Below, one piece after another: positions 6,970 to 37,759 of a DNA stretch of 37,759 nt. Every line of letters begins with the position of its first letter. The stretch's first letter is position 1. The position numbers were made by a program, and so were the translations under genes. The notes below the pieces were generated by a model. The model worked only from the letters and a program-made list of their open reading frames with translations. It made no database searches and had not been told where the DNA came from. Source of the stretch: an uncultured Planctomycetaceae bacterium. Its GTDB lineage: Bacteria > Planctomycetota > Planctomycetia > Planctomycetales > Planctomycetaceae. The stretch covers positions 1 to 37,759 of the forward strand of contig CAJWGB010000022.1 of NCBI GenBank assembly GCA_913031625.1, read 5' to 3'.

Positions 6970-6988
6970 GCTGCGAATGGGATGTCAG

Positions 6989-14942: not shown

Positions 14943-16403
14943 CTAATGAATCAGTGTCTTGAGGACGTGCCCGTGCACATCGGTCAGGCGGCGGTCAATT
15001 CCGTTGTGGCGAAATGTCAGCTTCGTGTGCTCAAGCCCCAGCAGATGCAGGATGGTGGCATTCAGGTCATGGACAGACGACACATCTTCCACCGCTTTGA
15101 AGCCCAGTTCATCCGTCCTGCCGTGGTTCGTTCCCGGACGGACTCCCGCACCGCCCAGCCATGCCGTGAATCCCTGAGGGTTGTGATCGCGCCCCTGGGC
15201 ACCCTTCTGAAACATCGGCATTCGGCCAAACTCTGTGCACCACACGACGAGCGTGTCTTCGAGCAGTCCTCGCTGCTTCAGGTCACGGAACAGAGCGGCT
15301 GCCGGCTGGTCGAGAATCTCTCCGTGCACATCATATTGTTCCCGGAGTTTCGAGTGGCCGTCCCAGTTGAGTCTGCCGCCGCTGGCGTAACTTCCATTGA
15401 ACAGCTGTACGAATCGGACTCCATTTTCGATCAGTCGACGAGCAAGGATCGCGTTGCGGGCGAACGCCGCTTTTGTTGTATTCTGCGAGTCAGCGCCATA
15501 CATCTTCAGGGTTGCCGGAGTCTCAGTCGACAGGTCCGCGATCCTCGGGACAGATAACTGCATCCGAGCAGCAAGTTCGTAGCTGGCCATCCGAGCGGCA
15601 AGACTGCCATCCCCCGGGTTTCGTTTCAGGTGTTCATCATTCAGCAGCGACAGCAACGATCGTGCGGCGGCATCCGCCTGAGCACCAACCATTTTCGGCG
15701 GTGTCAGATTCGAGATCGGTTTGCTGCTGTTGAATGGCGTGCCCTGAAAGACGGCAGGCAGAAAGCCCGGTCCCCAGTTATTGACGCTTGCCTGAGGAAC
15801 TCCACGCGGATCAGGGATCGCAACAAACGCCGGCAGGTCCTGGTTTTCAGTCCCAAGCGCATAGGTCACCCATGCGCCGATGCTTGGGAAGCCATCAAGA
15901 ACAAATCCGGTCGACAGAAAATTCTCGGCAGGTCCGTGGGTGTTGGACTTGTTGGTCAGCGTATGAACAAAGGCGAGGTCGTCCACGATTCCTCCGAGGT
16001 GAGGAATCATGTCGGAGACCATCATGCCACGCTCACCGCGCGGCCGGAATTTGTACTGAGGACGCGCCAGGTTTCCGGCCGGCCCCTGAAATGTCACCGT
16101 CGGACCGCCTTCCAGCGGCTGACCGTCGCGCTTGATTAACTCCGGCTTATAGTCATAGGTTTCCAGCTGGCTGCACGCTCCTGCGCAGAAGATCACCAGA
16201 ACATTCTTTGCCGCGGCGGGTCGATGACCCTTACGGGGTGCATGCGGCTGCGACGGGTTGAAGGTAACCTCAGGCGCGGCCAGCAGCTGGTCCTGATGAA
16301 GGAGACTCGTCAGCGCCACTCCAGCGAGTCCCGCTGCCGTCTGCCCAAGAAGGTCGCGGCGCTGCAGAAGATGTCGCCCGGTTGTCGAAAGCTGAGGATG
16401 CAT
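14943..16403 (-). CDS. Tat-exported DUF1501 protein (alkaline-phosphatase/sulfatase-like fold)
   Basis: A 486-residue DUF1501 family protein, related in fold to the alkaline phosphatase/sulfatase superfamily. The N-terminus [24 protein letters not shown] carries a twin-arginine signal (Arg15-Arg16), so it should be exported folded. Family signatures include [22 protein letters not shown] (spanning about 67-88), [44 protein letters not shown] and [21 protein letters not shown]. It starts 14 bases after the DUF1549/DUF1553 gene. This pair is one of the most repeated gene pairs in planctomycete genomes, so the two products probably work together outside the cytoplasm. The substrate is unknown; polysaccharide breakdown is often suggested but not shown here. 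Confidence 0.95.
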
Positions 16404-16417
16404 TCACACGCGCTTGA

Positions 16418-19400: not shown

Positions 19401-19741
19401 GCTTTGGCTCCACTGTTGATCCATTTTGTGAGTAAAGAGATCTGTTCGGTCGTCAGTGGGTCGCTTTCCGGAGGCATCCGCTCTTCAGCAGCGGCCGTGA
19501 TTCGCTGAATGATTGTGCTCCCCGGGGCGTTTCCTGCAACGACTGCAGCACCACTGTCTCCCCCCCGGATGGCGAGTGCCGCCGTATCCAGCCGAAGACC
19601 GCCTTCCTGTCTGAGCGGCCCGTGACAGGACCAGCAGTGAGTCTTGAGCAACGGCTTGATGTCAGACACATAGTCCGGGCCATCAGCGGCAAATGTCGCT
19701 GCAGAAAAGACGACAAAATAAAGGGCAGGCAGAAAATGCAT
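16418..19741 (-). CDS. PSCyt1-DUF1549-DUF1553 planctomycete cytochrome-like protein with F5/8C-type insert
   Basis: An 1107-residue exported protein. A signal peptide (about 1-18, ending TFAA) precedes a PSCyt1 domain with the haem-binding motif CWSCH (36-40). DUF1549 follows, with [17 protein letters not shown] giving a second CxxCH. The middle carries a discoidin (F5/8 type C)-like carbohydrate-binding region, visible as [19 protein letters not shown] and later [21 protein letters not shown]. The C-terminal DUF1553 (PSD1) shows [20 protein letters not shown] and [20 protein letters not shown]. The likely role is an extracytoplasmic c-type haem protein acting on or near polysaccharide, together with the DUF1501 partner 14 bases downstream. 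The signal n-region has no Lys or Arg, which is unusual, but no better in-frame start is visible upstream. No sigma or regulator gene sits next to it. Confidence 0.94.
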
Positions 19742-20570: not shown

Positions 20571-23500
20571 CTACAGTTGTTCCTGTTCGTCGCTGTCAGA
20601 CTTTCTGTTGCGACGTCGGCGGAAGATGGAAGGAGCAAGAAGCGCCATTCCGGCCAGCCAGCCTCTTCCGTCTTCCCTGTTGTCAACTGGTTCGAGTGCA
20701 CGTGAATCAGCAACCGGCTCAGCAAGTGTTGTTGACTCGGCCTCCTGAATCAGGTGATTGAAGTCTGACATGACTTCGTCCGCAGTGACTTCGTCGATCT
20801 GCTCGACAACAGTCTCAGGGATGACGCGGGCTACAGGTGTTTCAAGAGAAACATTCTGTTGCGGTGCCGCGACTTCCTCGCCGTTCTGTTCGACAACAGC
20901 CGCCGGAATCAGCGTGACAGAAACGCTGTCGTTCTGCAGCAGGCTACCCGGCAGGTCAAACGATGTCAGGATCGTACCCTGTTCGTTGTCTGTCTGGTCC
21001 AGTTCGGCGATGGTGAAGTCAACAAAGTTGCTCCAGATACTTCGGCTGCCGTCTCCATGGATCGCTCGCACCCATGCTCGATAGTCGCCTGATGCCAGAG
21101 CGACCGGTGACTGGTAGCTGGTACCCGGGACATCGGCATTGACTTCAGCAGGGACCGGCTGATTACGTCGTCCAGCATGGATCTCATACCCAACAACATT
21201 TGCGACTAAGGACCATGAGAAGACCGGACGGTTTGTGCTGACGTCCACAGGGTTCAGCGTTGGCACGCCGGCAGCACTGATCTCAAACGACTCAGCCAAA
21301 CTCCACGGAGACAACTGTCCAGTCGTTGATTCCGCCCGGACCCAGACGTTGTAAGCACCTGAATCGAGTGGATCCTGAACCGGATAGAACGGTGAGGTCA
21401 GATCCGTAAGGTAAACGAGTGGCGAGGATGACCCGGCAGCCGCCAGCCACAGGTAATAGCGAGTGGCACCTTCAACTTCGCTGAAGGTAATTGTCGGAGT
21501 CGAGTCCGTTGAATCTTCGATTGGGTCGATGTGTGGTCGGCCACCAACCTCGAAGTCCATTCGCTCGCTGAAACTCGTCAGCGTTGTCTCGCCGTTCACT
21601 CCCACGTTTGCTCCGCGTACATAGAACGCGTAGTTGCCGTTTGGAAGATCTGTCGACGGAACGTAGCTGTTGCCCGTGAGGCCCTGCCGGTGTTCAACAA
21701 CCACGGTTGGACTGACATCTGTTCGGATCAGATACGTCTCGTAGGAGTCAATCTCCGATTGAGGCCGCGAAGCATTCCAGATCAGTGTCGGGCGCGAATT
21801 GAATGACGGGCCCTGCGGCTCGGCAATCGGTGGAGTCGTCACGCCAAAGTAATATGGCTTACTCCACTGACTATCCTCACCATGTACCGTGCTTGCCTTT
21901 GCGTACCAGACGTACTCACCAACCGGCAGGTTGGACGGAGGCGTGAAGCTCGAAGACTGCTGATCGCTGACAACGTACTTCGTGAATCCTTCGGTGATCG
22001 AGGCCAGCCAGAAGGTCATGGTCACCTGAAACGGAGCCTGAACTGACTGCAGTGTCGGACGTGGAGAGTCAGTCTGCGTTTGAGGTGCAATTCCCAAGCC
22101 CTCGGATGGGCCGAGAAGTGCCGGCGGAGCTCCCAAAGTAAAGACTCGCACCGGACTGGACCCTGTGGTCACACCGTTTCCTGTAAACCGGACCCGAGCA
22201 TTGTAAACACCCGGTTCCAGCTCAGAACCCAGCGGAATCGTGAACGAGGATCCGACAATTCCCGCCTGGCTGAAGACGATCAGATCATTGCTGTCTGTCA
22301 GCACCAGCTCAGCGGAATCAGCACCGAACGGGCTGACCCAGTCAAATGTTGGACGGGTATTGTAAATCCCGGTGTGCGGTGAAGTCAGTTCTCCGATTGG
22401 AGCCACGGTAAAGGCGGCCACACTTGTGACTTCGACATCACCTGTTGAGGAAGTCGCAGCAGCTTCGTTGACTGCCGTGACGCGAATTTCGTAATCGCCC
22501 ACTTCAAGAGGCTGCGGAATGGCATACTCAAGATCTGTCAGGTCATTCGCGGTCAGAACCGGCTGCCCCAGAGCAGTCACGATCTCCAGATCATAATGAT
22601 CCGCACCGTTGACGGCAGAGAACAGGGCGGTTGGTTTATTGATCGTGATGGTTCCCAGTGGATTGCTGACCACAGAAGGGACGGCAACTCGGAACTGAGA
22701 AGTGGCCCAGTCACCTTCAAACTGGTCTGCCGACTTACCGCGTACGCGAACTTCGTAGTCTCCGATTGGGAGCTGTGTTGTTACGTCGTAGGTCAGACTG
22801 GTATGGCCAGTCACATTGATAACCGGGTCAACATCGTCCGTCAGGTTGGCGATCTGAATGTCGTACGTAGCTGCTCCCGGCACAGGGCCGAAGCCAACCT
22901 GTGGAAGGTGTGTGGCAATCATTCCCTGCGGAGCAGAAATCGACGGTGCAGTGACCACATTGAAGTTCTGTGGGGCACTCCAGTCACCCGGCTGCCCGGT
23001 CACATCTTCGATCGCTCGAACAGTAACGTCGTAGTTGCCGATTGGCAGCTCATTGGCATTGGCAATCAGGTGCGAACTGGATGTCCCCGGAACATCGACT
23101 GAGTAGACAACAGCATTGGTGACCGTGGACACAACTCGGATTTGGTACGTCTGGGTCTGATTAACATTGCTGTAGCTAATGACTGGAGTGCCATTATCAA
23201 TGTCACCAATTGGTGCCAGCACTTCCATCGCGACGACATCAAAGGGAGGCAATGTCGTTTTCGCTTCTGGACGGGTGACCCCTGCCCGATTGAAGCTGGT
23301 GACATCGATGGTGTAGGTGCCAGCCGCCAGTTGTTCCAGTTCCACAGAAGTTTCGATGTGGTTGTCGTAACTCTGTACCAGCACGGCTTGATCGTCGAAC
23401 ACTTCGACAAGATAATGTCCGTTCGCACCGGCAGGCGTTCCTGCAGCAGGAACCCACTCAACAAGTGGAGTCGAGTCACTGGTCTGAGGCCACATTGGCA

Positions 23501-26500
23501 GAACGGGGTCAACAGCCTGTGCATCGTAGAGCTCTGTGATGTTGAGGACGTAGTCTTCCACTTCACCGTCGTCCGCCCGACCGGTTGGTGCAAGGCTTCC
23601 GGCAGAGCTGAATCGAGCTCGCAGCCAGACGTTATCAACTGTTTCTGCTCCCGCAGGAACATCAAAGTCGAGTGTGTTCGAACCTGCGACAAGGTCAAAG
23701 CTGACACCGCTGTTGAGGTGCTCGCTCGTGTCGAACTCGTCGCTGTCATTGTAGTCGATCCAGACATCCAGCTTACCGGCTGCTGAAGCAGTCACTGTCA
23801 GGAAGGATGGCACGTCCAGAGTGTCATCACCCTGGATGAACTGATCGATTATAATGCCATCTTCGTCAGCACCATCACCAACAATAATGCCATCTTCGTC
23901 AGCACCATCACCAACACCGGGCTGACCATCCGTTTCTGCGTCGACTGCTGCACCAAGATGGAACCCGTCGACAATAGTATGAGCTGCACCGTTGGATGCA
24001 CGCAACGTACCGTAATCATCCGGAGCATCCCCAAAGTCGACGGTCAGAATCGTCAGTGTTGTGTCAGTCTCCACAGTCGTACCGTCGTTCACATCAGTAA
24101 CAGCCAGCGTGATGGTGTTTACGCTTGGTGCTGTCAGGCCGAAGCCCTGCAGGACCGACCAGGCAACATTGATGGTGGCGTCAGTGGGGTCCCCTATGTC
24201 TGTGTCAAACACACCGTCGTTATCCAGGTCCCACGAATAGGTCAATGAATCACCAGGAGTCCCCGGCACACCGATATCCGGGTCATATGACTGAGATGCG
24301 TCCAGCGACAGGCTCTGGCCTTCGTCAATTACATACGGGTCGGTGACAGGTACCGGATTATCCGGCTGTGGATTCACAGTAATCGTGATGGTCTGTGATG
24401 GAGACGTGTTGTCGTCCAGCATGTGCTCCGTTGGGCCATTGTCCTCAACCCAGATCTCAAATGTGGCCGAGCCGGACGTATGGGCGGCCGCTTCGTATGT
24501 GAGCACACCGGCTGCACTCACGTCGATCGAGTCGAAGCTCAAATTTCCACTTGTGAACTGCAGATTGCCGAGCTTGAAGGTGGCAGTCTGAGTCGCAATT
24601 TCATCTGTCGCCGCAGCAGGGCCAACTCCAACAGTTGCGATCAGATTGTTCTCGGTCACCAAACCGTAATCTTCATCACTCTGCAAAACCAAAGGTGTTT
24701 CGGTCAGGGTGAAGAATGGTTCATCGTTGATCGGCGTAACGTTGATATCGAAGGTATGGTCAACACTGCTGGCGGATACGTGATTCGGGTCAGCAGCATT
24801 AAAGTCCTTCAGCCGGAATCTCACGCGAGCACGTCCATTGGTATCCGGAGCCAGCTCAAACGTCAACATTCCATCCGGTGCTATGGCAGGAGCCTGTGTA
24901 AATGCAAGGTTGCCATCGACGACGAGCGGTGTGTCGACCTCGAACTGCAGCGTCTGAGCACCTTCATTGGGACCGGGGTCCATGTTGGTGACAAAGTTGT
25001 TATAGGTCTGGACATTCTGCGCGTCTTCATTCAACGGATTCAGTGGAGTCGGCGGATCGAATGTCGGCCGATCATTAACCGCGATGACATCAATTTCGAT
25101 CGTGTCCGTATCGACTTCCGGATCGTCATTGGGGGGCGCAGAAACCTGTCCGCGACCATCGGGGCCCGTATCGTCAGTCACGATCGTCAAAATCACCGGT
25201 GGCGTGGCCCGCATCGTTCGATCTTCGAGCGGCAGTAAATTGAAGAACTCAGCCGGAGGTTGATAAATCAGGCCTTCAAGTGCAGCGTTAATGTCTGCAA
25301 TCGAACCATTGAACGTAATCGAGCTTTCCTGAGTTCCGGTATCTCCGGTTGGGAAATCAAGCCCGTTCGTAGTTGACAGCGAGAGCGTTCCAACAGTCAC
25401 GCTGATCGTGACATTCAGCCGAGGATCCGTCGCGAGGTGCACGTCTGCGTCAAAGACGGTGATGGCGTTTCCGGCTGACGAACTGAAGACGAGGGTCGTA
25501 TCTTCGTTGGTCTGCTGGAAGTCCGGAACAGTATTGATCGGCGCGTCATTAACACCATCACTCACAAGGATATTGAACAGAACGGACCCGTCAGACTGGT
25601 TGGCCTGCAGCAAATTGCCGGCAAAGTCCCGAACACCATCGACATCACCTGGCAGCACGGCTGCCTGATTGATGACGGTAATCTCGTAGCGCTGTTCTTT
25701 TTCCCATTCCGTCGGCGATATCAGGACCACCTGATTATTCACGTCATTATAGCGCCACAGGTAGTCGACTCCTTCGATCAGCGTGTCACCATTGTGAGTG
25801 ATAACAAACTGGTCTGCGTTGATATTGGCATCGTCAATGCCTATTCCTTCGTCCTCCAGCTGAATAACAAACTCTCGAACCGGCTCTTCGCGGGCAATCA
25901 GCAGGTAGTCGGGACGCGGGTCGAAATCTTCCGGATCCAGCAGGAGCGCCGTCGGACCAAAGAAGTCAACCCGGTCAATTGCCCCACGGTCGATAAAGAC
26001 GTTGCCTCCCTGGCCACTTGTGTTTGGTGCATCAGGGTCGTCGACTCGGAGCTGCCCGTAGACATCGTTGTTGGGAGCGAGGATGGGAGAAATTCCCAGG
26101 CCAAGCGGATTCTTCACCGTAATGAGCTGGGTGCGATCCCCGAGTGAGGCCAGACCGCTATCGACAGCCTGCGAGCCCGGTGCTGGATAGAAGTTTCGGT
26201 TTGCCTGATCAACAAACAGGGGGTCGGCAGCCGACAGCGAACGAGGAAAAGTTCCCTGCCCGATACCATTTGTCGCTGTGGTGGCACGGTACAGCATTGA
26301 GCCGAGAACCGGGGCCGCACCGCCAATCAGGTTTGTTGCCTGAACTCCCGTACCGACGTCCGCGACGATGTTGTTCAGCACGGTCGGAGACGCACGATCG
26401 ATCTGAATCCCTGTACCTCCACCGTTACCAACAATCGTGTTGTTGACAATTCGGTCGTATGGCACGACTCCTTCAGGAGATCCGCCAGCACCTTCGACTC

Positions 26501-29500
26501 GAATTCCGGTTGGGTTTCCGGCCACAACGTTATTCGTGATCACGACACCTGTTGCCAGGCGTCGCACATTCTCTTCCACAAGGTTTCTGACAGCACCTGG
26601 TGTAGGCCGGTCATTGATGTCACGGGTGCCCGCATTGACGAGGATTCCTACGTTTGCGGAATCAGTCACAGAGTTATTGCGGATGATCAGCTGACCCTGA
26701 TCCCGGTGATGGTTGCTGTCCCCAAATCCCTCGTGGTACGTAATGATGGCTTCCGCGAAGTCTGTTGTTACCTCGACAACACCATCAAGAATGATCGTCT
26801 GGCTGGTGCTCTCATACCCACCTGTAAAGTCAGCATCCTGCCCATCACTGAGCTGAGCACTTGTGCGGAGCACCCCCTGAACAATCTGTGAATTGATTGC
26901 ATCACGGAGAAGTGCCGCAGTGCTTTGATTGTCAAGCGTTGGGTCAAACAGAACCGGATAGGCACCGGCGTCAGGTGTTGTATTTCCGGTCAGGTCAAGC
27001 AGCTGAAAGACAACGGTGTTGATGCCGTCATTGATTTCAATTTTCGCTCGGTCACGAGACTGCGTATGAATCGGCAGTGTAATGGCTGCCAGGTTCTCAA
27101 CCCGATCATTTGTGTCGATTGATATACGGTTACCGAACAAATCGCGTTCCAGCAATGATGCTCGGCGAATTTCTACATCGTACTTGCCGACATTTACCCC
27201 TCCAGGCCCAAGCTGCTCATGCCCGGTGCCTGCGGTTGGAGTTGTGACTGCCTCGCCTCTTTCCGCAAACCCGATCATAAAGTCATCCAGATAGATGCCT
27301 TCATGTGCATTATTCCGGGATGCTGCTGCACCGTACGGCACCGCGTTGTCCTGAGGCGTGCCGTCTGCTAACCCCAGCGGTCCAGACTGGTCAATCCGGT
27401 GATCGTAAAGCCGCAGGACAGTGTCAGTTCCCTTAATGAAGTCAGTGGATGCGATGTTGCCGTCGACGGGTGCTGCAAACACATCAGCGATCGCCTGACG
27501 CAACACGTCAGCAACCTGAGCTGCATTAAAATCACCTTCAATCACGACTGGAACATTGCCAGGGGAGACACCGGCACCACCAGTCAGAACCAGTGCAGTC
27601 GATGATGACGTTATGTCATTTACTGACGCAGAATGAACCGTGACTCGATTGCCCGTGACAACAGCAAGATCAAGTGGCTGGGTGCCAAAGGGAGTTTCCA
27701 CCAGAGTAGTCCCCGGAGGATCAATGCTGAGTTCCGTTCCGGGAACCCCGGATTCGATGGGGGTCTCCCGTTTATCTGTCTTCAGCAAAGTCGCAGGTGA
27801 CAGATTCACCTTTTCCGCGGAAAACGTAATTGCATTCCCATCCAGTCGATTAATGGTCTCTTCGAACTCAAAGCCGTTTGCGAGGTTGATCAGGGTATCG
27901 AAGTTGGCATTAACCGATGCCGAACCCATGCCAAAAATGACATTGATACGGTCTCTTGTGGCATTGGCCACAAATTGGGCGCTGCCATTGATATCAATAC
28001 CGATCTCGAATTGTGAAGGCGGACCGGCAGCAGCATTAACGTACGTGAAGACATGATCATTGCCCATCGCGGTGTCATGGATCACAAACGTATCGCCGAA
28101 TGCCAGTGGTCCCCAGTTCACCGTAAAAGCAGTTGGCGAGTTTTTGGTGATTGAGGCTTCGTGCGAATCACCATCTTCGGTGAGAGTTAAATTCTGGAAA
28201 TACAGAACGGTATCGCCATCTGCCACGGCTGATTCCGGACCAAAGTCCGGGTCGTCATAGTTCCTCAGATGCGCGGCGATCCGCTCGGCGGCCTGCGGTG
28301 CAGAATCCCCGGCGTTGATCTCAATATCCTCGGGCTCAATAGCCCCGGGGGACGTGTAGGTAAAGGTTGTCCCCCACGCCTTAAACTGCTGACCGATGGC
28401 GCTGCCCCCGGTCGGAGTGGTGATATGCCGTCCGATATCGAACTCAAAAATAACCCCGTCAATCTCGACAAAATCATCCACATCTCCGTCTGTGATATCA
28501 GCCGCAGGAACACTAAACAGCTCAATACCACCATTAGCGGCTGTGGCAAGGTCAAGAGTTCCTCCTGTGCTGAAGTCAAATCGGAGCTGTAGGTTGTCGA
28601 GTGTGACAAAATCACTCAGGTCAATGCGGGCCTGTCGCCAAATTCCGCGATTGTCGTGGATCGGGTCGCCACCGTCGACCTCGCCATCGTCGACCGCATT
28701 GGATGCAATCTGAACCCAGTTACTGTCCTGTCCAATCGAGATCCGAAGAGCGTCATGGAATGTGTCTGCGGTGTCTTCGGTTGCCGCAAAGTAGTTGAAA
28801 TAGAGGTGCGGTCGATCCTCCGGTGAATAACCCTCAAGGCTGAACGGGTTGCTGATGACAGTTCCGTGAGCACCGCCCGGGAAGTTGTAATCACGTAAGA
28901 CCGTGTCATCCAGGTTGTTCAGATTTCCGGCACCAACGGCACCGACCGTATTACCAAAGTACAGGCTGGTCCCACCTTCAACATTGCGTTCAGGATTGTC
29001 GTAGATCGGGTCGATGCCATGGCCGTCGTCCTGGCCACGATGAGTCGTGGTCGTCCAGAGATTTCGCTCCAGTGTACTGAAGGCAAGCCCAGTGACAGAA
29101 TTGACCCCAACATCAACAGACGTCGCGTTATCGGCAAACACCGGCTGCAATTCTCCATCCGTATTGAACGCATGAAGCATGCCATCGGTCGATATACCGA
29201 ACAGCAGATCATCGTATCGAGCATCTTCGACAGTGGACGGAGCAGCAGCGAGGCCGGCGAATTCAATGTCCAAGCCGACCAAGTCGCCCAAGCCGTCCAC
29301 GTCGCCGACGTTGCCCACGAGAACCGAAAGGTTGCCGGGCAAGACTTGGTACAGGTTTCCGAAGTGGTCGACTGCCCAAAGACCACCTCCTGATTCGGCA
29401 AGTCCGGTGATGATTCCTATCCCGGTTGCTCTCTCCTCAGTGACTATCTGCGCAAATTCAACCTGTTGCGTACCTGCACCTTGATAGGCCTGTGCATCGT

Positions 29501-32500
29501 TGATTCTGTTGGGAAATGGGCTGTCAGATGCTCCATTCTGCTGATCAAGCCGGTAGACGATGTTCTCATCATACTCATTGAATTCGAGACTGTTCGCTGG
29601 CGTGTTACGAACTCGGCGATCACCAACAGCAAACAGGTTGTTTCCAAAGAACGTCATTGCGTTGTAATCAATGACGCCATCCGGAACGAGAGTCACTGTG
29701 TCATCGAACGGATTTCTCCGCAGGGGATTGCCCACTAGCGCCTCATTGAACACATTGATCCCGTCATCACCCAGGTTGGTGACGGCGGCAGTCCCTGTGT
29801 CGATCTGCAGGAAGTTACCGGTGTTGGTTGAACTCCAGTCGTTCGTGTCATTCTCCGATGTCAGAGTGAACAGTGCTCCGTCACGCCGCATCGCAATGTC
29901 ATTGGTCTCTTCGCCAAAGGCACCAATGATATAGTTGTTAGTGGTATGCCCGGTGAATGGATTTACCATCCTCAGCTGAGTTTCATTGCTGCCCGTATCC
30001 TGGCTGACGAACAGCACAATGTCGGCAAGGCTGTATGGAATCTCCTGGTCGTCAACATTATCGAACAGAATGAATTGCGCCGAATTAGCAGGATCTCGCT
30101 CAGTGCCATCCAGTCTGTCCTCCACAATCAGGAGTGAGCCGGGATTCGGCTCCAGTCTGGTCAGCGGGCTGTTGGGAGCCTCAAGGAAAAACTGATCCAG
30201 GGTTGCCGGGACACTGATGGCATTATGAACGGCCAGCGTATATCCCGCTGCGGCGGGCAACTCGACCTGACCGATAAACGGATCAAATTCTCCCACAGAT
30301 CCCCGAGAGAGATCATCCACGTCCCCGCCGATCTCCAGGGGACCCGGGCGGTCTTCCGCAATGTTGGCACTGCGACCAATCAGGATCAGTTCGCCGTCAG
30401 GGTTATAGATTGAAAGTGACGTGTCAGGTCGGGCCAGACCATCCGCATAATCCAGATCAAAGACAACAGCCACAGGCGCTCCGTCTCCTGGCTGCTGAGT
30501 AGACTCATATTCAACGTCAAAACTCAGAAAATGTACGTCCGTGTCCCCTGAAAGCGTGCCGGACAGGGAAAGTGCGGCGCGGTCCGATGCCAGCAGGTTT
30601 CCAAGATCAGAGCCGGGCCGCCTGGACTCACCCAGCAGCGGACTGTGAATTGGCTGACCCTCAATTGTAATACCCGTGGCCGCGTGTCGAATGTCCGCGT
30701 ACTGCACGGTCGTCCCGGCATGCTCATCAGTTTCCTGCATCCTGATCTGCAACTGGTAGCGGCCGGTCGTCTTTCCGTCATGCAGTTTGGCAGGATTTTG
30801 AAGATCCCCGCGAGGATCGGAAGACTGTGAATCAATATTGTTACTGCGAACCCGCACAAAATAGTCACCGCGAACTCCAGTGGTCCCCGGAAGAATCAGT
30901 CGCAGTCCCGGGTCACGCGGGTTCACGGTGAATGTGTCGTCACTCAGGTACCGGGAATGGTCCAGTGGAAACGCCTGGGTACCACCATTTGCATCGTAGA
31001 CCGGCCAGGCACCAATTTCTTCGTAGTGAGTGCTGTCCGAAAGTGCCAGCACCTGTTTATTGGCGTCAAGCACCTCAATGATAGGATCCAGGCGCTGGCT
31101 GGTGCGGTCAACATCCAGCCAAACGTGAGTGCCGGCGACTCCGCTGAAGCTGTAGACGTCCACATCATCCGGACTGTCAATCGTGCCGTGCACCTCAAAT
31201 CCGAGTCTGAGTGTCTCATCACCAGACTTCTCGTCTGCAGCCAGAACGCCAATTACTTCCGGGAACAGCGTTTCATTGGTGCTGGGCGCTAATGCATTAG
31301 AGATTTCACGTTCAAGATAAACCTCGACGTTTCGATCGTGCGCGTACTCTTCAATCGAAATGCCCGCCCAACTTCCTGCCGTCGGAGCTGTTGTCCCGTT
31401 GCTTTCCGTGTCCGTCAGCGGAAATCCATCCGGCCCAAATCCAGCTCCCACAGAGTCGTCGTCAATTGATGTAATCACCACCGGCCGGCCGGGCTGACCA
31501 ATAATGTGCAGCATCCCGCCAATGCGGTCGATCATATCCAGCGGATCACCGGACGCCGAGAATCCGGAGTTTGCACCGTCAACCTTAACGACAAGACTTT
31601 CGAGCGGGTTGCTTTCCAGGCGCAGTCCTCCAAACGTATGCAGGTTTGGCACATAGACTTCGTTGCGCAGTACGTGGACAATATCCGTGTCGTCCCAGAC
31701 GACCTGGGTGTTAACAACCTCACCGCGAATCTCCATCCCGTTAACGTCGTTGTTTTCATAGAGATTGCCGCGGACCAGTGGTCCCTGGTTGTCAATAAAT
31801 CCAGTCTCCTGATCAGCCAGCCCCGTCGATCGGCCCGGGTCTGTCACAATGTCTGCATTCAGGGCGTTGGAATTGATATTTGCGACGGGACCCTCATTGT
31901 TCCGGAATACATTGTCCAGGATGACTGGCTGAGAAGACCGAACAAAAATCGTCCCTTCATCGTGCGTCAGCAGTCCAAAGCGATTGGGTGGAGCCGTGCC
32001 ACCCAGACCATCAGCATTCTCGCTGAATTCAGTGTTTGCGATTCGTGCAGTGGCCTGATGGATTTCAATGGGATTGAAGGCTGCAAAGTCACCTTCCAGA
32101 GGCGTCACACCTCCCGCGTTATGAATCAGCGCATTATCAAGGCTGATCGAACCAGTGTGTCCCACATAGATTCCGCCCCAGTCTCCCGGCGCATTCTGCA
32201 GGCCCGCACCGTCGTCATTCGTATCAAATGTACCGCCTGCTCCGTACTCATCGTTGCGGCGTGACGTGAAGACAACTTCCTGTCCTTTCTGCCCTTCCGC
32301 AATAATAGTCGCACCGAACCCAGCTCGAATATGCGACCCTTCGAGCTTCACGATGATACCGGGGTCAATGGCCAGTCGGGCATGCAGCCGTCCTCGATCC
32401 CGTGGATCGGTCATCGTCATCCGATCCAGCTCCCGTTCAAATGTTTCTCCCTCGTCCAGCCATGTGGTAGCTGAGGCGTCCAAAGCCGCTGCCAGCTCGG

Positions 32501-35500
32501 GCACTCCTCCGTCTGTCACCCTGTAAATGTGCCGACCGGTATAACCATCGATAGTTACGGGCAGCTGCTGAAGCTCGATGCCGCCGGTAGACGACAGAGT
32601 AATCGCTGGCACTTCAGCCGACGCCGGACTCTCAAAGCCCTGGTCATCCACAAAGACAACGTGGTATGAGTAGCTGCGTCCACCCGGAAGGTTCCCCGTA
32701 GTGGATACCTGCGAGAAAGTGATTGCGACATCAGGAGCCACCGTTTCGCGGACTGAGCCCCCTGGAGAACCGGCCAGCACCAGATTCTGAGCCACAACAT
32801 GAACGATGTCCCGGTCATCAAATCGACCAGGTACGGTCATTTCCAGAGTTTCGCCGCCTGCAGGAGTGGTAACCCGGATGAACAGGCCGTTTGTCGAGTT
32901 TTCAGTCAGCGTATTGAAATAGATATCCGGACCGACTCGCTTGTAGTCCGACGTAAACGGTGCACGGCCCTCCTGAAATCGCGGCGAATGGAACGTGAGC
33001 TCCTCAAAGCTGTCCGGATCAGCTGAAATCGCCGAGTCCTCATTCAGCGAGATGTTGTTATGGGCAATTGTTGGCTGCGATTCCGCAATGTGAATTGGAT
33101 TAACCGTCTGCAGGACTGAATCCACAATGACATTACCACCTCCGTAGTGGATGTCCGCATGTGCCACATAGTTGAGGAAGATACCTTCGTTCTCAAAGCT
33201 GAAATTGTTCTGATCGCCGTCGACGTGATTGCGGAAGACAAGGCCACCCCAGTTACCAGCTGAAGGTGCGGTTGGTGTGTTGGTCGTGTCCGTTCCGACA
33301 GTTTCGTCGAGCCACGAAGTAAACAGAACGCGATTGTTCGGAGTACCCAAAACCTGAAGTGCACTGCCGCTGCGATTCAGGCTGGTCGAGGAGCTTCCGG
33401 CCCCGATCCGAGATCGATGCAGCTTGAAGAGCGCCCCGCCATCAATCATCAGCGTAACACCCTGAGGAACTTCAACCTCGCGTCCGTCTTCGAGAGCTGC
33501 ATTTGTGAGACTGGTTCCGACCTGATACGGCAGGTTGTCTTCCCGGGTCAGGACATCTTCATCCAGACCGCCGTTGCCGACGACTCGGACAATATCTCCT
33601 TCGGTGGCAGTGCTGATCGCCTGGGGAATTGTGCCAAACGGCGCCGCCAGAGTACCGTCTTCAGCAGCATTGCGGACAACACTGCCAGCAGAATGGGAGA
33701 CCTGTGTGGTCCCATTCATCCCACGAGTAACACCGACGAGGATATTTGAAAGATCACTGTCATCAATCGACGTGATTTGCAGCTCTTCACTGCCAATGAC
33801 AATGTCATCGCCCACTTCAAATGTGGTGACATGGTCAAACACCAGCGTGGTCTGGCTGGCCGTTGTCGGAAACGGCAGGTGTGCAATCGCAGCCTTGTCA
33901 ACGAAAATGTTGTCGGCAACAGCGGCTGCGGAGAACCAGAAATTGTAGACGCCTCCGGCTTCTCCGTCGTTGTCTCCATCAAACTCCATTCCCGTCGTGT
34001 CGACGATCGTATTGTCCACATCAGGGCGAAAGTTCACCCGCAGGTCGAACGCACCACTGGACGTGCCTCCGAATCCGGTGTCCCTGATTGTGGGGTCGTA
34101 GGCGTCATTGCCGGTAGACGACACTCCGATGTAGTAGTCGTATCCCGGCGTCAGGTACAACTCAAGGTACGAATCTTCACCGAAGTAGTCATCGTTCTGG
34201 CTGATGAGTTCAAGATCACCACCTGTCTGATTTTTGCGGAACAAACGGAGCACGGAATCAAGCCTGCTGGCATCAGACTGCCGCTCAGCCACAATCTCTG
34301 CAGAGAACAATCCGGCATCCGTCACTGTGAAATTCCAGAGGTCAATGTCGTTAGACGCCGGCCGATACAGGTGGCGGCCGTGAACAACATCGTGATCACC
34401 GGGGTACGTGTCTTCCGTCACGACGTTTCGACCTGCAGTCACTGCAGGTTCTGAGCCCATATGAGTTCCGAGCGGCAGCTCGTAAGTGTGACCAATTCCC
34501 AGCAGGTGACCGATTTCGTGCAATGCCGTCTCAAACCATGACTGCAGTCCACCAGCAGCAGGGCCGAGCTCATCGTGCCAGGTATCGCCCATATCCATGA
34601 TGGCCAGACCATTCGGGGCTCCGACATTGGCAAGGCCAAGTACCTCACCGGGGCCGATGTCAATCTCGGGGTCCAGGGCACGCATGTCGCCGGTAACAAT
34701 GGTGTATCCCTGGTCGGGAGTTTCAATGAAGTCGACGCCAAGGAGATTTGAGTACAACTCAAAAATCTCGCGAGCCCGCTCTTTCTGGTTCTCTGTGATC
34801 AGGTTGTGCAGATCGTTTCCGGCAGGGTCCTGACCGTAAACATCCTGAAAATTGTAGAATCGAATATCAGCTTCTTCACTCGCATCGGGCCCACTACCAA
34901 GATGGCCTTCAACCTCGGCCGGGATTTCTCGATGCCCGGGTTCATCGTCCGCTCCTGGATAGTCAAATGGGTTCGGAAGAGCACTGGCTCTAATTTCACC
35001 CTGAAGGATAATGTTGTTGTTTGCAGCTTGGCTGACATCTCCGAGTAGAATTGCGTCACGCACACTCGAGCCAGCATCTGGACCCAAAGGCGTTACAGAC
35101 GGCGGATCGGCAAGGTTTTGGTCTTCATCAGTTCCAATGCGCAGTCGATAACGACCAGCACCGAAATCAGAAATATCCGAGGCAAACGTCAGGACAGCCG
35201 TATTGGCTGCAGCGTCGTAAGCCACTGTATCCGGATTGAAAACGTCATCGTCGAGATTGCTGACCGTGTCGTTAGTAAAAATCAGTTGATAGAAACTCGT
35301 GTTTTCAGCGGATGCCTGGTCCAGTTCATCGTTATTAAAGTACACAACAATCTGATCTCTCGCCTGAGACAGACTGCCGTCAGCATTGCGAGTGACCGGC
35401 TGTGGATCAACAGCCAAAATGCGGGCACCAAGGTCCAGAGAGAAATTGAAGACGGTGTCATTCTGGCCAAGGTTCAGAATCTCTCCGTCCGCGTTCGTAA

Positions 35501-36302
35501 TCGGCGCTGCACTCGTCCCATCGAGGATAATCTGATAGTCATCATCGACCAGATTTTCAGCGAACCGAATCACAATCTCTTCAGACGTATCACCGCGTCC
35601 AAGGAAGCCAACATTGACTGGCTCAAACGATGAAAAATCACCGTCGCCACCCGCTCGCCTCACCTGCACGGTACTGGCGTTAATCGTGCTGAAATCCAGA
35701 TCCTGACCGGGGTTGAACTGAAGTGTCAGTTCATTCGGCGGAATAGAGCGCGTATCACCATCCGTGATGAAATCGCCCACATCAGGCCGAACGGCAATCA
35801 GAGATGGCGCTGGGTGCTGAATTGAAAAGGTGAACTCGTCGTTCACACCCGCGTTAAACTGTTCACCATCTGTATTCGCCAGTGTTCCGGGAATCGTGAT
35901 CCGATAGAGGTCAGGTGGCAACTGCTGCCCAACCTGCAACAAAACCTCATTGGTACCGCCAGGACCAATCAAAGTAAGGGGAACGGTGATGTCCGTGCCG
36001 TCAAATGCGCCGTCCCCACCCGCACGTTCCAGTACGAAGCCGTTGACCGTGTTGTTGTCGATGTCCGGTGTGGAACTGAAGTTGAGAGCGAACTCACTCG
36101 GTGAGTGCGTCAGCTCCTCGTCTTCAACAATCGTCTGCCCGGCATCGTCCTCAACCTCAACCAGCTGAGGGGCTGCCAGGAGGTGGCGACTTTCAAGATG
36201 CTCCAAAGTTCGGGAAGCCTGTTCCGGGATACGACGACTGGTTCGGCGAGCGTAAGGACGAAGACGACTGCGGAAGGACTGAAGCCAGGTGGAAATCAGC
36301 AT
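20571..36302 (-). CDS. Giant modular surface protein with zincin metalloprotease motif (5243 residues)
   Basis: One uninterrupted frame; the ATG at 36302 has AGGAA five bases upstream. The basic N-terminus carries a LEPR-XLL-like motif, LEHLESRHLLAA (33-44), typical of planctomycete surface proteins. Approximate order by residue: SbsA-type Ig-like repeats 45-400; metzincin-like region about 480-650 with HEIGHLLGIGH (His595, Glu596, His599, His605); PPC-like domain 651-760; beta-helix modules about 885-1700, with three related VxFTS...WGGI units near 993, 1344 and 1608; another PPC-like part; propeller-like stretch about 2090-2440; second beta-helix about 3195-3390; Ig-like 3452-3578; cadherin/tandem-95-like 3586-3985; PKD-like 3985-4085; GEVED domain 4088-4258; nine FN3-like repeats to about 5120. 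The end has a short hydrophobic segment (GWLAGMALLAPSIF) followed by RRRRNRK, a probable sorting tail. I find no cysteine. Function inferred: cell-surface or secreted adhesin/protease. Confidence 0.9.
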   Translation of the reverse strand: MLISTWLQSFRSRLRPYARRTSRRIPEQASRTLEHLESRHLLAAPQLVEVEDDAGQTIVEDEELTHSPSEFALNFSSTPDIDNNTVNGFVLERAGGDGAFDGTDITVPLTLIGPGGTNEVLLQVGQQLPPDLYRITIPGTLANTDGEQFNAGVNDEFTFSIQHPAPSLIAVRPDVGDFITDGDTRSIPPNELTLQFNPGQDLDFSTINASTVQVRRAGGDGDFSSFEPVNVGFLGRGDTSEEIVIRFAENLVDDDYQIILDGTSAAPITNADGEILNLGQNDTVFNFSLDLGARILAVDPQPVTRNADGSLSQARDQIVVYFNNDELDQASAENTSFYQLIFTNDTVSNLDDDVFNPDTVAYDAAANTAVLTFASDISDFGAGRYRLRIGTDEDQNLADPPSVTPLGPDAGSSVRDAILLGDVSQAANNNIILQGEIRASALPNPFDYPGADDEPGHREIPAEVEGHLGSGPDASEEADIRFYNFQDVYGQDPAGNDLHNLITENQKERAREIFELYSNLLGVDFIETPDQGYTIVTGDMRALDPEIDIGPGEVLGLANVGAPNGLAIMDMGDTWHDELGPAAGGLQSWFETALHEIGHLLGIGHTYELPLGTHMGSEPAVTAGRNVVTEDTYPGDHDVVHGRHLYRPASNDIDLWNFTVTDAGLFSAEIVAERQSDASRLDSVLRLFRKNQTGGDLELISQNDDYFGEDSYLELYLTPGYDYYIGVSSTGNDAYDPTIRDTGFGGTSSGAFDLRVNFRPDVDNTIVDTTGMEFDGDNDGEAGGVYNFWFSAAAVADNIFVDKAAIAHLPFPTTASQTTLVFDHVTTFEVGDDIVIGSEELQITSIDDSDLSNILVGVTRGMNGTTQVSHSAGSVVRNAAEDGTLAAPFGTIPQAISTATEGDIVRVVGNGGLDEDVLTREDNLPYQVGTSLTNAALEDGREVEVPQGVTLMIDGGALFKLHRSRIGAGSSSTSLNRSGSALQVLGTPNNRVLFTSWLDETVGTDTTNTPTAPSAGNWGGLVFRNHVDGDQNNFSFENEGIFLNYVAHADIHYGGGNVIVDSVLQTVNPIHIAESQPTIAHNNISLNEDSAISADPDSFEELTFHSPRFQEGRAPFTSDYKRVGPDIYFNTLTENSTNGLFIRVTTPAGGETLEMTVPGRFDDRDIVHVVAQNLVLAGSPGGSVRETVAPDVAITFSQVSTTGNLPGGRSYSYHVVFVDDQGFESPASAEVPAITLSSTGGIELQQLPVTIDGYTGRHIYRVTDGGVPELAAALDASATTWLDEGETFERELDRMTMTDPRDRGRLHARLAIDPGIIVKLEGSHIRAGFGATIIAEGQKGQEVVFTSRRNDEYGAGGTFDTNDDGAGLQNAPGDWGGIYVGHTGSISLDNALIHNAGGVTPLEGDFAAFNPIEIHQATARIANTEFSENADGLGGTAPPNRFGLLTHDEGTIFVRSSQPVILDNVFRNNEGPVANINSNALNADIVTDPGRSTGLADQETGFIDNQGPLVRGNLYENNDVNGMEIRGEVVNTQVVWDDTDIVHVLRNEVYVPNLHTFGGLRLESNPLESLVVKVDGANSGFSASGDPLDMIDRIGGMLHIIGQPGRPVVITSIDDDSVGAGFGPDGFPLTDTESNGTTAPTAGSWAGISIEEYAHDRNVEVYLEREISNALAPSTNETLFPEVIGVLAADEKSGDETLRLGFEVHGTIDSPDDVDVYSFSGVAGTHVWLDVDRTSQRLDPIIEVLDANKQVLALSDSTHYEEIGAWPVYDANGGTQAFPLDHSRYLSDDTFTVNPRDPGLRLILPGTTGVRGDYFVRVRSNNIDSQSSDPRGDLQNPAKLHDGKTTGRYQLQIRMQETDEHAGTTVQYADIRHAATGITIEGQPIHSPLLGESRRPGSDLGNLLASDRAALSLSGTLSGDTDVHFLSFDVEYESTQQPGDGAPVAVVFDLDYADGLARPDTSLSIYNPDGELILIGRSANIAEDRPGPLEIGGDVDDLSRGSVGEFDPFIGQVELPAAAGYTLAVHNAISVPATLDQFFLEAPNSPLTRLEPNPGSLLIVEDRLDGTERDPANSAQFILFDNVDDQEIPYSLADIVLFVSQDTGSNETQLRMVNPFTGHTTNNYIIGAFGEETNDIAMRRDGALFTLTSENDTNDWSSTNTGNFLQIDTGTAAVTNLGDDGINVFNEALVGNPLRRNPFDDTVTLVPDGVIDYNAMTFFGNNLFAVGDRRVRNTPANSLEFNEYDENIVYRLDQQNGASDSPFPNRINDAQAYQGAGTQQVEFAQIVTEERATGIGIITGLAESGGGLWAVDHFGNLYQVLPGNLSVLVGNVGDVDGLGDLVGLDIEFAGLAAAPSTVEDARYDDLLFGISTDGMLHAFNTDGELQPVFADNATSVDVGVNSVTGLAFSTLERNLWTTTTHRGQDDGHGIDPIYDNPERNVEGGTSLYFGNTVGAVGAGNLNNLDDTVLRDYNFPGGAHGTVISNPFSLEGYSPEDRPHLYFNYFAATEDTADTFHDALRISIGQDSNWVQIASNAVDDGEVDGGDPIHDNRGIWRQARIDLSDFVTLDNLQLRFDFSTGGTLDLATAANGGIELFSVPAADITDGDVDDFVEIDGVIFEFDIGRHITTPTGGSAIGQQFKAWGTTFTYTSPGAIEPEDIEINAGDSAPQAAERIAAHLRNYDDPDFGPESAVADGDTVLYFQNLTLTEDGDSHEASITKNSPTAFTVNWGPLAFGDTFVIHDTAMGNDHVFTYVNAAAGPPSQFEIGIDINGSAQFVANATRDRINVIFGMGSASVNANFDTLINLANGFEFEETINRLDGNAITFSAEKVNLSPATLLKTDKRETPIESGVPGTELSIDPPGTTLVETPFGTQPLDLAVVTGNRVTVHSASVNDITSSSTALVLTGGAGVSPGNVPVVIEGDFNAAQVADVLRQAIADVFAAPVDGNIASTDFIKGTDTVLRLYDHRIDQSGPLGLADGTPQDNAVPYGAAASRNNAHEGIYLDDFMIGFAERGEAVTTPTAGTGHEQLGPGGVNVGKYDVEIRRASLLERDLFGNRISIDTNDRVENLAAITLPIHTQSRDRAKIEINDGINTVVFQLLDLTGNTTPDAGAYPVLFDPTLDNQSTAALLRDAINSQIVQGVLRTSAQLSDGQDADFTGGYESTSQTIILDGVVEVTTDFAEAIITYHEGFGDSNHHRDQGQLIIRNNSVTDSANVGILVNAGTRDINDRPTPGAVRNLVEENVRRLATGVVITNNVVAGNPTGIRVEGAGGSPEGVVPYDRIVNNTIVGNGGGTGIQIDRASPTVLNNIVADVGTGVQATNLIGGAAPVLGSMLYRATTATNGIGQGTFPRSLSAADPLFVDQANRNFYPAPGSQAVDSGLASLGDRTQLITVKNPLGLGISPILAPNNDVYGQLRVDDPDAPNTSGQGGNVFIDRGAIDRVDFFGPTALLLDPEDFDPRPDYLLIAREEPVREFVIQLEDEGIGIDDANINADQFVITHNGDTLIEGVDYLWRYNDVNNQVVLISPTEWEKEQRYEITVINQAAVLPGDVDGVRDFAGNLLQANQSDGSVLFNILVSDGVNDAPINTVPDFQQTNEDTTLVFSSSAGNAITVFDADVHLATDPRLNVTISVTVGTLSLSTTNGLDFPTGDTGTQESSITFNGSIADINAALEGLIYQPPAEFFNLLPLEDRTMRATPPVILTIVTDDTGPDGRGQVSAPPNDDPEVDTDTIEIDVIAVNDRPTFDPPTPLNPLNEDAQNVQTYNNFVTNMDPGPNEGAQTLQFEVDTPLVVDGNLAFTQAPAIAPDGMLTFELAPDTNGRARVRFRLKDFNAADPNHVSASSVDHTFDINVTPINDEPFFTLTETPLVLQSDEDYGLVTENNLIATVGVGPAAATDEIATQTATFKLGNLQFTSGNLSFDSIDVSAAGVLTYEAAAHTSGSATFEIWVEDNGPTEHMLDDNTSPSQTITITVNPQPDNPVPVTDPYVIDEGQSLSLDASQSYDPDIGVPGTPGDSLTYSWDLDNDGVFDTDIGDPTDATINVAWSVLQGFGLTAPSVNTITLAVTDVNDGTTVETDTTLTILTVDFGDAPDDYGTLRASNGAAHTIVDGFHLGAAVDAETDGQPGVGDGADEDGIIVGDGADEDGIIIDQFIQGDDTLDVPSFLTVTASAAGKLDVWIDYNDSDEFDTSEHLNSGVSFDLVAGSNTLDFDVPAGAETVDNVWLRARFSSAGSLAPTGRADDGEVEDYVLNITELYDAQAVDPVLPMWPQTSDSTPLVEWVPAAGTPAGANGHYLVEVFDDQAVLVQSYDNHIETSVELEQLAAGTYTIDVTSFNRAGVTRPEAKTTLPPFDVVAMEVLAPIGDIDNGTPVISYSNVNQTQTYQIRVVSTVTNAVVYSVDVPGTSSSHLIANANELPIGNYDVTVRAIEDVTGQPGDWSAPQNFNVVTAPSISAPQGMIATHLPQVGFGPVPGAATYDIQIANLTDDVDPVINVTGHTSLTYDVTTQLPIGDYEVRVRGKSADQFEGDWATSQFRVAVPSVVSNPLGTITINKPTALFSAVNGADHYDLEIVTALGQPVLTANDLTDLEYAIPQPLEVGDYEIRVTAVNEAAATSSTGDVEVTSVAAFTVAPIGELTSPHTGIYNTRPTFDWVSPFGADSAELVLTDSNDLIVFSQAGIVGSSFTIPLGSELEPGVYNARVRFTGNGVTTGSSPVRVFTLGAPPALLGPSEGLGIAPQTQTDSPRPTLQSVQAPFQVTMTFWLASITEGFTKYVVSDQQSSSFTPPSNLPVGEYVWYAKASTVHGEDSQWSKPYYFGVTTPPIAEPQGPSFNSRPTLIWNASRPQSEIDSYETYLIRTDVSPTVVVEHRQGLTGNSYVPSTDLPNGNYAFYVRGANVGVNGETTLTSFSERMDFEVGGRPHIDPIEDSTDSTPTITFSEVEGATRYYLWLAAAGSSSPLVYLTDLTSPFYPVQDPLDSGAYNVWVRAESTTGQLSPWSLAESFEISAAGVPTLNPVDVSTNRPVFSWSLVANVVGYEIHAGRRNQPVPAEVNADVPGTSYQSPVALASGDYRAWVRAIHGDGSRSIWSNFVDFTIAELDQTDNEQGTILTSFDLPGSLLQNDSVSVTLIPAAVVEQNGEEVAAPQQNVSLETPVARVIPETVVEQIDEVTADEVMSDFNHLIQEAESTTLAEPVADSRALEPVDNREDGRGWLAGMALLAPSIFRRRRNRKSDSDEQEQL
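23851..23916 (-). repeat. Perfect 33-bp tandem duplication inside the GEVED domain
   Basis: Bases 23851-23883 and 23884-23916 are identical. The unit is a multiple of three and duplicates 11 residues, VGDGADEDGII, in the acidic loop of the GEVED domain (about residues 4129-4151 of the giant protein). Perfect identity implies a recent event or ongoing slippage. Confidence 0.95.
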
Positions 36303-36995: not shown

Positions 36996-37759
36996 TCATT
37001 TGGCGGGAATGTAGTTGAGCGTGTAGTACGCCTGCGAATGCAACAGCGGTACCTCTCTCTCCGATCTGACCCCTTTGGCGTGCAGCTCATGAACATGGCC
37101 GCGCTGTAGACCGTCGACGTAAAGCCGTACTGACTGGCCGTCTTTGCCGGCCACCGCGCGCGTTATTTTGGGAGTCGTGTGGTCCACTTCCGGGCTGCCG
37201 TAGGACGACTGAAAAATGTAGGTGTAAGTCGAAATTTCCCAGGACTCTAAGTCTTCCGCAGTGGTCGCATTCACGGGCTGAGTGAACGTCAGTTCGAAGC
37301 CGTCTGGCTTCGCTCGCATTTCGTGAATCTCGAACGGAACTTTGCCCGTCCATGTGAGGCGTTCCAGCGCGTATGGTTTGGTGCCTCTTGAGCCCCAGCC
37401 GCGGTTGGTGCCGCCGACAAACATCGAGCCATCAGGAGTGATTCGAACCGAGAGGCTGCCGGAGCCAAAACCCTCACGAAACGGAAAACAGGCTCCCTGA
37501 TAATGGCCGTCCACCTGTTCGAGAAAGCACCGCATTACCGTGCTGAACGTCTGGTCGCCGACAAACATCTGCGATGAAAAGGGACCGAAATTGCCTTTGG
37601 AGAGGTCGCACGCCACGCCGCTCGCAGACTGCCCCATCTTCTTGTACGGGAATAGAATTGCGGGCGGTTCGTATTCCGGGATTCGGTCCGCCTCCGTCAT
37701 GATTCGGCTGCCACTTTTCGGCTCCGTTGGAGCGTCGCCCAGAGCCTCTTTAGCCGCCT
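36996..37759 (-). CDS. C-terminal part of a sorbosone-dehydrogenase-like propeller protein, 5' end beyond window
   Basis: The frame is open from the right edge to the stop at 36996 (about 253 residues visible), so the apparent Met at 37700 is internal. The first part resembles blades of a glucose/sorbosone dehydrogenase-type beta-propeller: [20 protein letters not shown], then [14 protein letters not shown] and [15 protein letters not shown]. The last 130 residues ([46 protein letters not shown]) match the C-terminal extension common in planctomycete and verrucomicrobial membrane-bound dehydrogenase-like proteins, which often also carry a c-type haem domain. That domain, and any signal peptide, would lie outside the window. 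Catalysis is not shown; sugar or sugar-alcohol oxidation is the family suggestion. Confidence 0.72.

What the first reader, a model, noticed from the sequence alone, without database searches (positions are those of the whole stretch)
20571..36302. 15.7-kb single-frame gene for a 5243-residue modular protein combining protease, beta-helix, GEVED and FN3-like modules
The gene takes 42% of the window and is uninterrupted, so it is under selection to stay intact. The module order (Ig-like, zincin, PPC, repeated beta-helix, propeller-like, cadherin-like, PKD, GEVED, nine FN3-like repeats, hydrophobic-Arg tail) does not match any characterised protein I know. It could be a self-processing surface fibre or a predatory/adhesive protease.
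Basis: partly seen in the sequence, partly recalled or inferred. Interest (0 to 1): 0.78.

Follow-up and report, generated by a model that had tools for sequence, protein, structure and literature searches.

The report
Giant planctomycete surface protein with protease
A planctomycete bacterium carries one intact gene for a 5243-residue, probably exported surface protein with a matrix-metalloprotease-like domain; it belongs to a widespread giant-protein family in which about half of the examined members have lost the zinc-binding residues while the rest of the protein is kept.

Summary
The gene is real: 20571-36302, minus strand, 5243 aa, no cysteine (64 expected from nine other ORFs of the window). 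The N-terminus carries the planctomycete export motif ExLExRxLLA (Pfam Planc_extracel, below cut-off).

It is no orphan. Its core (about residues 165-3600) aligns with 13 other giants of 4713-8378 aa. Core homologues occur in 61 of 170 genomes of its own family and 158 of 199 of a second (Pirellulaceae-like) family. dN/dS is 0.02-0.10 in nine close pairs.

Unexpected: of 81 homologues with a readable site, 39 lack the zinc ligands (at least 9 changes on the tree). In six of eight selected tandem arrays such a copy lies directly upstream of an intact one.

Best reading: an exported structural/adhesive surface scaffold whose built-in matrixin does accessory, probably local or self-processing, cleavage. 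Planctomycete giant genes are known; ten paper searches showed no description of this family. Function is inferred, not shown.

The parts
20571..36302 (-). whole gene, 5243 aa, single frame, no cysteine
36168..36206 (-). N-terminal export motif LEHLESRHLLAAP (residues 33-45), Pfam Planc_extracel-like
   Evidence: Pfam PF07595 E 0.0011, 19.0 bits, below cut-off 25.5; consensus ExLExRxLLA as quoted in PMC8567305 passages
   Evidence: aligned in the 13 other giants; no Pfam support
34443..34868 (-). matrixin (M10-like) domain, about residues 479-620
   Evidence: weak fold matches to MMPs, none at E 0.001 or better
34488..34520 (-). zinc site HEIGHLLGIGH, residues 595-605; Met615 follows ten residues later (candidate Met-turn)
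34023..34385 (-). PPC-like beta-sandwich, about residues 640-760
   Evidence: PPC in 9 of 14 homologous segments; window's own segment not listed at E 0.01
32733..33665 (-). beta-helix-like region 1, residues 880-1190
   Evidence: conservation; strand-rich model with pLDDT mostly 64-88 over this part
31353..32396 (-). beta-helix-like region 2, residues 1303-1650, the most conserved stretch
   Evidence: Pfam Beta_helix E 0.0011 below cut-off; model; invariant columns
30738..31208 (-). second PPC-like domain, about residues 1699-1855
   Evidence: Pfam PPC E 0.001; collagen-binding-domain fold match, ColG 5iku
29067..30119 (-). beta-propeller, about residues 2062-2412
   Evidence: model and Foldseek, best E 4e-5; boundaries inferred from the model's strands
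25533..27290 (-). conserved region 3005-3590 with beta-helix signature at 3251-3323
   Evidence: Pfam Beta_helix E 2.4e-4 and NosD E 0.0044, both below cut-off; conservation
24276..24395 (-). cadherin-like fragment, residues 3970-4009 (weak)
   Evidence: Pfam Cadherin_4 E 0.0018, below cut-off
23541..23771 (-). GEVED domain, residues 4178-4254
   Evidence: Pfam GEVED E 3.7e-13
20973..23462 (-). nine FN3/Ig-like repeats, about residues 4281-5110
20601..20663 (-). C-terminal tail GWLAGMALLAPSIFRRRRNRK, residues 5214-5234
   Evidence: found in 5 giants of four same-genus genomes; other matches there only at E 0.036 or worse

Best explanation
The gene encodes an exported, cell-surface or matrix scaffold protein. 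Proposed working: the N-terminal planctomycete export motif routes the chain out of the cell (inferred from the motif); outside, a cysteine-free, very acidic chain (pI 4.1) folds into a long series of beta-helices, beta-sandwiches and a propeller that act as a rigid, binding-competent fibre, while the variable C-terminal GEVED/FN3-like part and the tail set reach, partner choice or anchoring (inferred). The matrixin domain near the N-terminus is competent by sequence in this copy and most likely makes local cuts in the protein itself or in neighbouring matrix proteins during assembly or turnover (inferred; no cleavage shown). Shown: intact frame, conserved collinear core, purifying selection in relatives, intact zinc site here, loss of that site in about half of the readable relatives. 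Because the scaffold persists without the zinc site, the scaffold is taken as the main function and proteolysis as accessory.
For: Core 165-3600 aligned across 14 giants with 265 invariant columns, nearly all within it; dN/dS 0.018-0.103, including four pairs without zinc ligands at 0.064-0.103. Export motif: 30 of 34 giants by regular expression, the other four carry near variants by eye; Planc_extracel in 7 of 10 N-termini scanned, 1 above cut-off; passages of PMC8567305 describe the motif as a proposed N-terminal export signal of cell-surface proteins, 20 of 52 motif proteins seen in a proteome. 0 Cys against 64 expected; 1 Cys in 79,834 residues of 14 giants. Binding-type folds: propeller, ColG-like collagen-binding domain, GEVED, FN3-like. 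Zinc site lost in 39 of 81 readable homologues.
Against: No experiment. The protein could be periplasmic or released. No classical signal peptide or long hydrophobic stretch was seen (hydropathy only), and no secretion gene is linked: apart from within-genus blocks, the one neighbour type shared by at least three loci that include the window is DUF1501, in 3 of 19. Some relatives do have cysteines: G399 copies 16 and 10, G449 copies 8 and 3. The active copies may have a distinct catalytic role that the scaffold argument misses. Fold evidence for the zincin is weak (pLDDT 60; no Foldseek hit at E 0.001).
Confidence: 0.5

Rival explanations
1. Secreted digestive or predatory protease: the beta-rich body carries the matrixin to prey cells or polymers and the protease does the work.
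For: Intact HExxHxxGxxH here and in 40 of 81 readable homologues (42 with the looser HE..H.....H); a PPC/ColG-like domain, a type found beside collagenases; some relatives carry two protease domains.
Against: 39 of 81 lack the ligands yet the four such pairs tested are conserved. One small domain in 5243 aa would be costly for digestion.
Confidence: 0.2
2. Glycan-active or glycan-binding giant: the beta-helices, not the zincin, are the business end, as in lyases and phage depolymerases.
For: Beta-helix 2 is the most conserved stretch, with invariant acidic residues in WDDTDIVHV in 37 of 37 aligned rows (D235, D236, D238 and H241 of alignment A4); weak Foldseek hit to depolymerase Depo32, prob 0.44. 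Passages of PMC5177795 report carbohydrate-binding and adhesion annotations for five genes over 20 kb of F. marisgermanici.
Against: No carbohydrate-enzyme family in the Pfam or NCBIfam scans. The same DDxDIVHV signature recurs in beta-helix 1, which fits a structural role.
Confidence: 0.17
3. Paired system: intact and zinc-less paralogues are exported together, the zinc-less one acting as partner, inhibitor or assembly template.
For: Six of eight selected tandem arrays have the zinc-less copy upstream of an intact copy on one strand with gaps of 139-796 bp; four further named assemblies hold one of each.
Against: Arrays were picked, not sampled; one is reversed and one has two intact copies. 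The core profile found one match in the window's own genome, so the window's protein would have to work alone; that genome is in 444 contigs, 96% complete.
Confidence: 0.13

Closest known systems
Giant genes of planctomycetes, including Fuerstiella marisgermanici NH11 (PMC5177795, outline with abstract and passages seen)
   Same: 15.7 kb exceeds the 5 kb threshold used there. A same-genus genome of exactly the published chromosome length (8,920,478 bp) carries two homologues of 6386 and 8378 aa; the larger (25.1 kb) should be among the five genes over 20 kb that the paper ran through InterProScan (inference).
   Different: The passages give a size class with general annotations; no family with this core or any loss of the zinc site is described in them.
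Planctomycete cell-surface proteins with the RRLxxExLExRxLLA N-terminus (PF07595; Studholme 2004, seen only as cited in PMC8567305)
   Same: LEHLESRHLLA at residues 33-43 fits ExLExRxLLA.
   Different: Scores below the Pfam cut-off; the body is not covered by that family.
Matrixins (M10): human MMP-12; bacterial karilysin
   Same: HExxHxxGxxH, a following Met, profile E 2.4e-8 to MMP-12 and 7e-4 to karilysin.
   Different: No cysteine, so no cysteine switch; embedded in a giant scaffold; the zinc site is missing in many relatives.
Bacterial collagen-binding/PPC domains (ColG, ColH)
   Same: Foldseek ColG 5iku E 6.7e-5; profile hit to ColH only E 0.071.
   Different: No collagenase domain of that family was hit.

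Membership tests
Peptidase family M10 (matrixin) | HExxHxxGxxH zinc motif | tested here: met
   HEIGHLLGIGH at 595-605
Peptidase family M10 (matrixin) | Met-turn methionine after the third His | tested here: met
   Met615 in the window; by eye, 7 of 11 intact-site giants have a Met there, 4 (G003, G004, G005a, G039) do not
Peptidase family M10 (matrixin) | profile score above the curated cut-off | tested here: inconclusive
   24.9 bits against 24 as isolated domain; 22.0 against 24 in the half-protein
Peptidase family M10 (matrixin) | matrixin fold | tested here: inconclusive
   model mean pLDDT 60; MMP hits only at E 0.027 or worse
Peptidase family M10 (matrixin) | prodomain cysteine switch (recalled; a mark of animal MMPs, not of all M10) | tested here: not met
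   no Cys in the protein
Peptidase family M10 (matrixin) | proteolytic activity | not testable with these tools
   needs protein
Planctomycete cell-surface proteins (PF07595) | ExLExRxLLA consensus near the N-terminus | tested here: met
   residues 33-43
Planctomycete cell-surface proteins (PF07595) | Pfam gathering score | tested here: not met
   19.0 against 25.5 bits; hence not filed as a formal PF07595 member
Planctomycete cell-surface proteins (PF07595) | surface location | not testable with these tools
   needs fractionation
PEP-CTERM/GlyGly-CTERM type sorting tails | one tail shared by many proteins of a genome (recalled) | tested here: not met
   in four same-genus genomes the tail profile finds five giants at E 5e-17 or better and nothing else better than E 0.036
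RTX adhesins or proteases | hemolysin-type calcium-binding repeats | tested here: not met
   no such Pfam family listed for the protein or its slices
Bacterial giant genes | over 5 kb (threshold as used in PMC5177795) | tested here: met
   15,732 bp

The most novel reading that the evidence does not exclude
A planctomycete-specific surface-assembly system built on giant paralogues: matrixin-bearing scaffolds and zinc-less sister scaffolds are exported by the planctomycete N-terminal signal and co-assemble, with the live matrixin cutting the pair in place to mature surface fibres such as those at crateriform structures. The window's gene would be a stand-alone, self-maturing form of it.
Probability: 0.15. 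Interest if true: 0.78.

Novelty: new variant of a known kind. Interest (0 to 1): 0.52.

Why it matters
Planctomycetes have many giant genes with little known function. This one belongs to a definable, conserved family (158 of 199 and 61 of 170 genomes in two families) with a common core, a candidate export signal and a natural experiment in which the same scaffold exists with and without the zinc site. That makes 'what are planctomycete giant proteins for' testable with one knockout and one active-site change in a laboratory strain. It also bears on how proteases become non-catalytic structural parts.

Tried and rejected
Rejected: chance or artefact frame (long frames in relatives, purifying selection). 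Rejected: shared sorting tail. Rejected: an operon with a fixed partner; 15 clusters present in at least three of 19 stretches were listed, and only a DUF1501 cluster (3 of 19) includes the window. Rejected: tandem DNA repeats as the origin of the length; three short arrays only. Internal duplication of the beta-helices by self-BLAST at E 0.01 gave no pair, although the DDxDIVHV signature recurs by eye. RNA genes: none found. Promoter and terminator scans found no more than shuffles.

Led nowhere or was limited: NCBIfam gave only weak irrelevant hits on the halves and none on ten N-termini. Single-sequence PDB search: MMP-12 E 0.044 only, nothing for the C-terminal half. The zincin model was poor. 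Paper searches: ten in all. For the papers opened I saw passages only (PMC5177795 also its outline and abstract; PMC2754498, PMC3482391, PMC11573180, PMC5394234, PMC10868602, PMC10952558, PMC8567305). Reva and Tummler 2008 and Studholme 2004 were not read, only seen as cited. The library holds open-licence PMC papers only.

Rows dropped: L055 and L111, identical to G003 and G004, before the tree; 11 of 92 rows without a readable zinc site are not in the 81. Only the best 80 of 392 named relatives were returned. A2/A4 rows were chosen for completeness and shorter insertions; A4 used 37 sequences.

Full report
The observation. The window (contig 22 of a 6.70-Mb, 444-contig genome, 96% complete) holds one frame of 5243 codons on the minus strand, 36302 to 20571. 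It has no cysteine; nine other ORFs of the window have 57 in 4666 residues, so 64 were expected. Its pI is 4.1 and its computed mass 560 kDa.

Anatomy. Residues 33-45, LEHLESRHLLAAP, follow a basic stretch and match Pfam Planc_extracel (PF07595) at E 0.0011, 19.0 bits, under the cut-off of 25.5; seven of ten N-termini scanned match and one passes the cut-off. Passages of PMC8567305 give RRLxxExLExRxLLA as a proposed N-terminal export signal of planctomycete surface proteins. Residues 165-430 are conserved but match no Pfam family. Residues 479-620 are a matrixin domain: HEIGHLLGIGH at 595-605 and Met615, Pfam M10 at 24.9 bits against 24, profile against MMP-12 E 2.4e-8. The AlphaFold model of 440-1190 is poor (mean pLDDT 60), and Foldseek finds MMPs and meprins only at E 0.008-0.08. 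PPC-like domains follow. Residues 880-1190 and 1303-1650 are beta-helix-like; the model of 1303-2440 (37 sequences, mean pLDDT 77) ends in a beta-propeller (about 2062-2412), with WD40, LRP6 and Bacteroides surface propellers as top hits at E 4e-5 to 1e-3, and includes a ColG-like collagen-binding fold at E 6.7e-5. TM-scores are low, so these are fold-class statements. A further beta-helix signature lies at 3251-3323, below cut-off. Cadherin- and PKD-like matches are sub-threshold; GEVED (4178-4254) is firm at E 3.7e-13; nine FN3/Ig-like repeats run from about 4281 to 5110. The tail GWLAGMALLAPSIFRRRRNRK is shared by five giants in four same-genus genomes; the profile's other matches there have E 0.036 or worse.

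Relatives. With the N-terminal half as query, 27 of 58 genomes match, own included, some only through PPC-like pieces. I fetched 13 giants chosen for long frames (4713-8378 aa). Alignment shows a collinear core of about residues 165-3600, with gaps at 2601-3000 in several and 2101-2300 in one; 265 columns are invariant, two of them beyond residue 3600. Past 3600 the alignment is good only within the genus; two Rhodopirellula-like homologues keep GEVED near the end but show no fn3 at E 0.001. With the core profile A2: phylum sample 29 of 392, of which 20 are full-length cores (own family, f5 and f7) and nine are partial matches of about 80-130 positions; own family 61 of 170; second family 158 of 199. 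Named relatives, best 80 of 392, include Rhodopirellula europaea 6C, Blastopirellula marina DSM 3645, Roseimaritima, Gimesia and Fuerstiella. Genome G005 has the exact length published for F. marisgermanici NH11.

Selection. Nine close pairs give dN/dS 0.018-0.103. In some, synonymous change is near saturation. Four pairs are zinc-less copies (0.064-0.103). No pair includes the window's gene.

The zinc site. Among 14 giants, three lack it. Among 92 cores (94 less two duplicates), 81 have a readable site: 42 fit HE..H.....H (40 also the stricter HExxHxxGxxH), 39 do not, 11 are unreadable. At least nine changes are needed on a quick tree rooted at the midpoint; the direction is not given by the tree, and loss is inferred from the match to M10. 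One supported clade of 30 rows has 25 zinc-less, 5 unreadable and no intact site. The 80 named loci are the nearest relatives, not a random sample.

Tandem arrays. Eight arrays were read: two met early, six picked from the printed, truncated list. Each array lies on one strand with gaps of 139-796 bp. In six a zinc-less copy is directly upstream of an intact one (G580, G588, G507, G449, G399, G053); G532 is reversed; G446 has two intact-type sites, one without the Gly. Four more named assemblies hold one of each. Several intact copies carry a second HExxH domain. The window's genome gave one core match only.

Neighbours. Downstream on the same strand are a planctomycete cytochrome c/PSD1 protein and DUF1501. 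Conserved neighbours are otherwise confined to genus blocks; DUF1501 recurs in 3 of 19 stretches. No secretion gene was seen in the window by Pfam, apart from an outer-membrane efflux protein 11.6 kb away (6965-9016).

Mechanism. Export motif, absence of cysteine, acidic beta-rich modules and binding-type folds point to a surface or matrix scaffold. Persistence of the scaffold without the zinc ligands says that proteolysis is not the common function; in this copy the site is intact and accessory cleavage is the likeliest use. Passages of PMC5394234 describe fibres of 12 nm and 6 nm tied to crateriform structures; a link to this protein is speculation. Steps shown: gene, conservation, zinc-site states. 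Steps inferred: export, assembly, cleavage.

Novelty. Giant planctomycete genes and their surface role are in print (PMC5177795 and PMC11573180, passages). Ten searches listed no paper on this family, on GEVED in planctomycetes (0 papers) or on Rhodopirellula with giant, metalloprotease and tandem together (0 papers); the library is partial. I rate it a new variant of a known kind.

Noticed in passing
G648:C21:79171-80916: A homologous core lies in an open frame of 18,985 residues in another genome of the same family.
   Followed up: no
23851-23916: Perfect two-copy 33-bp repeat inside the gene, giving a doubled acidic VGDGADEDGII-type segment just ahead of the Pfam GEVED match; looks recent.
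   Followed up: no
L150-L169 arrays (G580, G507, G446, G399): Some intact copies carry a second, more N-terminal HExxHxxGxxH domain.
   Followed up: partly
about residues 1161-1170 and 1535-1544 of the protein: The signature DDxDIVHV recurs in beta-helix regions 1 and 2, suggesting an old duplication that self-BLAST did not detect.
   Followed up: partly
14943-19741: Planctomycete cytochrome c (PSCyt1/PSCyt2/PSD1) and DUF1501 genes just downstream on the same strand.
   Followed up: partly
3-2047: Protein kinase and ECF sigma factor genes whose ORFs overlap by one base.
   Followed up: no
G399 and G449 arrays: Exceptions to the cysteine-free rule: 16 and 10, and 8 and 3 cysteines.
   Followed up: no
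L063: A contig titled Candidatus Kuenenia stuttgartiensis carries a core grouping with Planctomycetaceae rows; the title may be wrong or the bin mixed.
   Followed up: no
36996-37757: Upstream minus-strand ORF with no Pfam match, running off the contig end.
   Followed up: no
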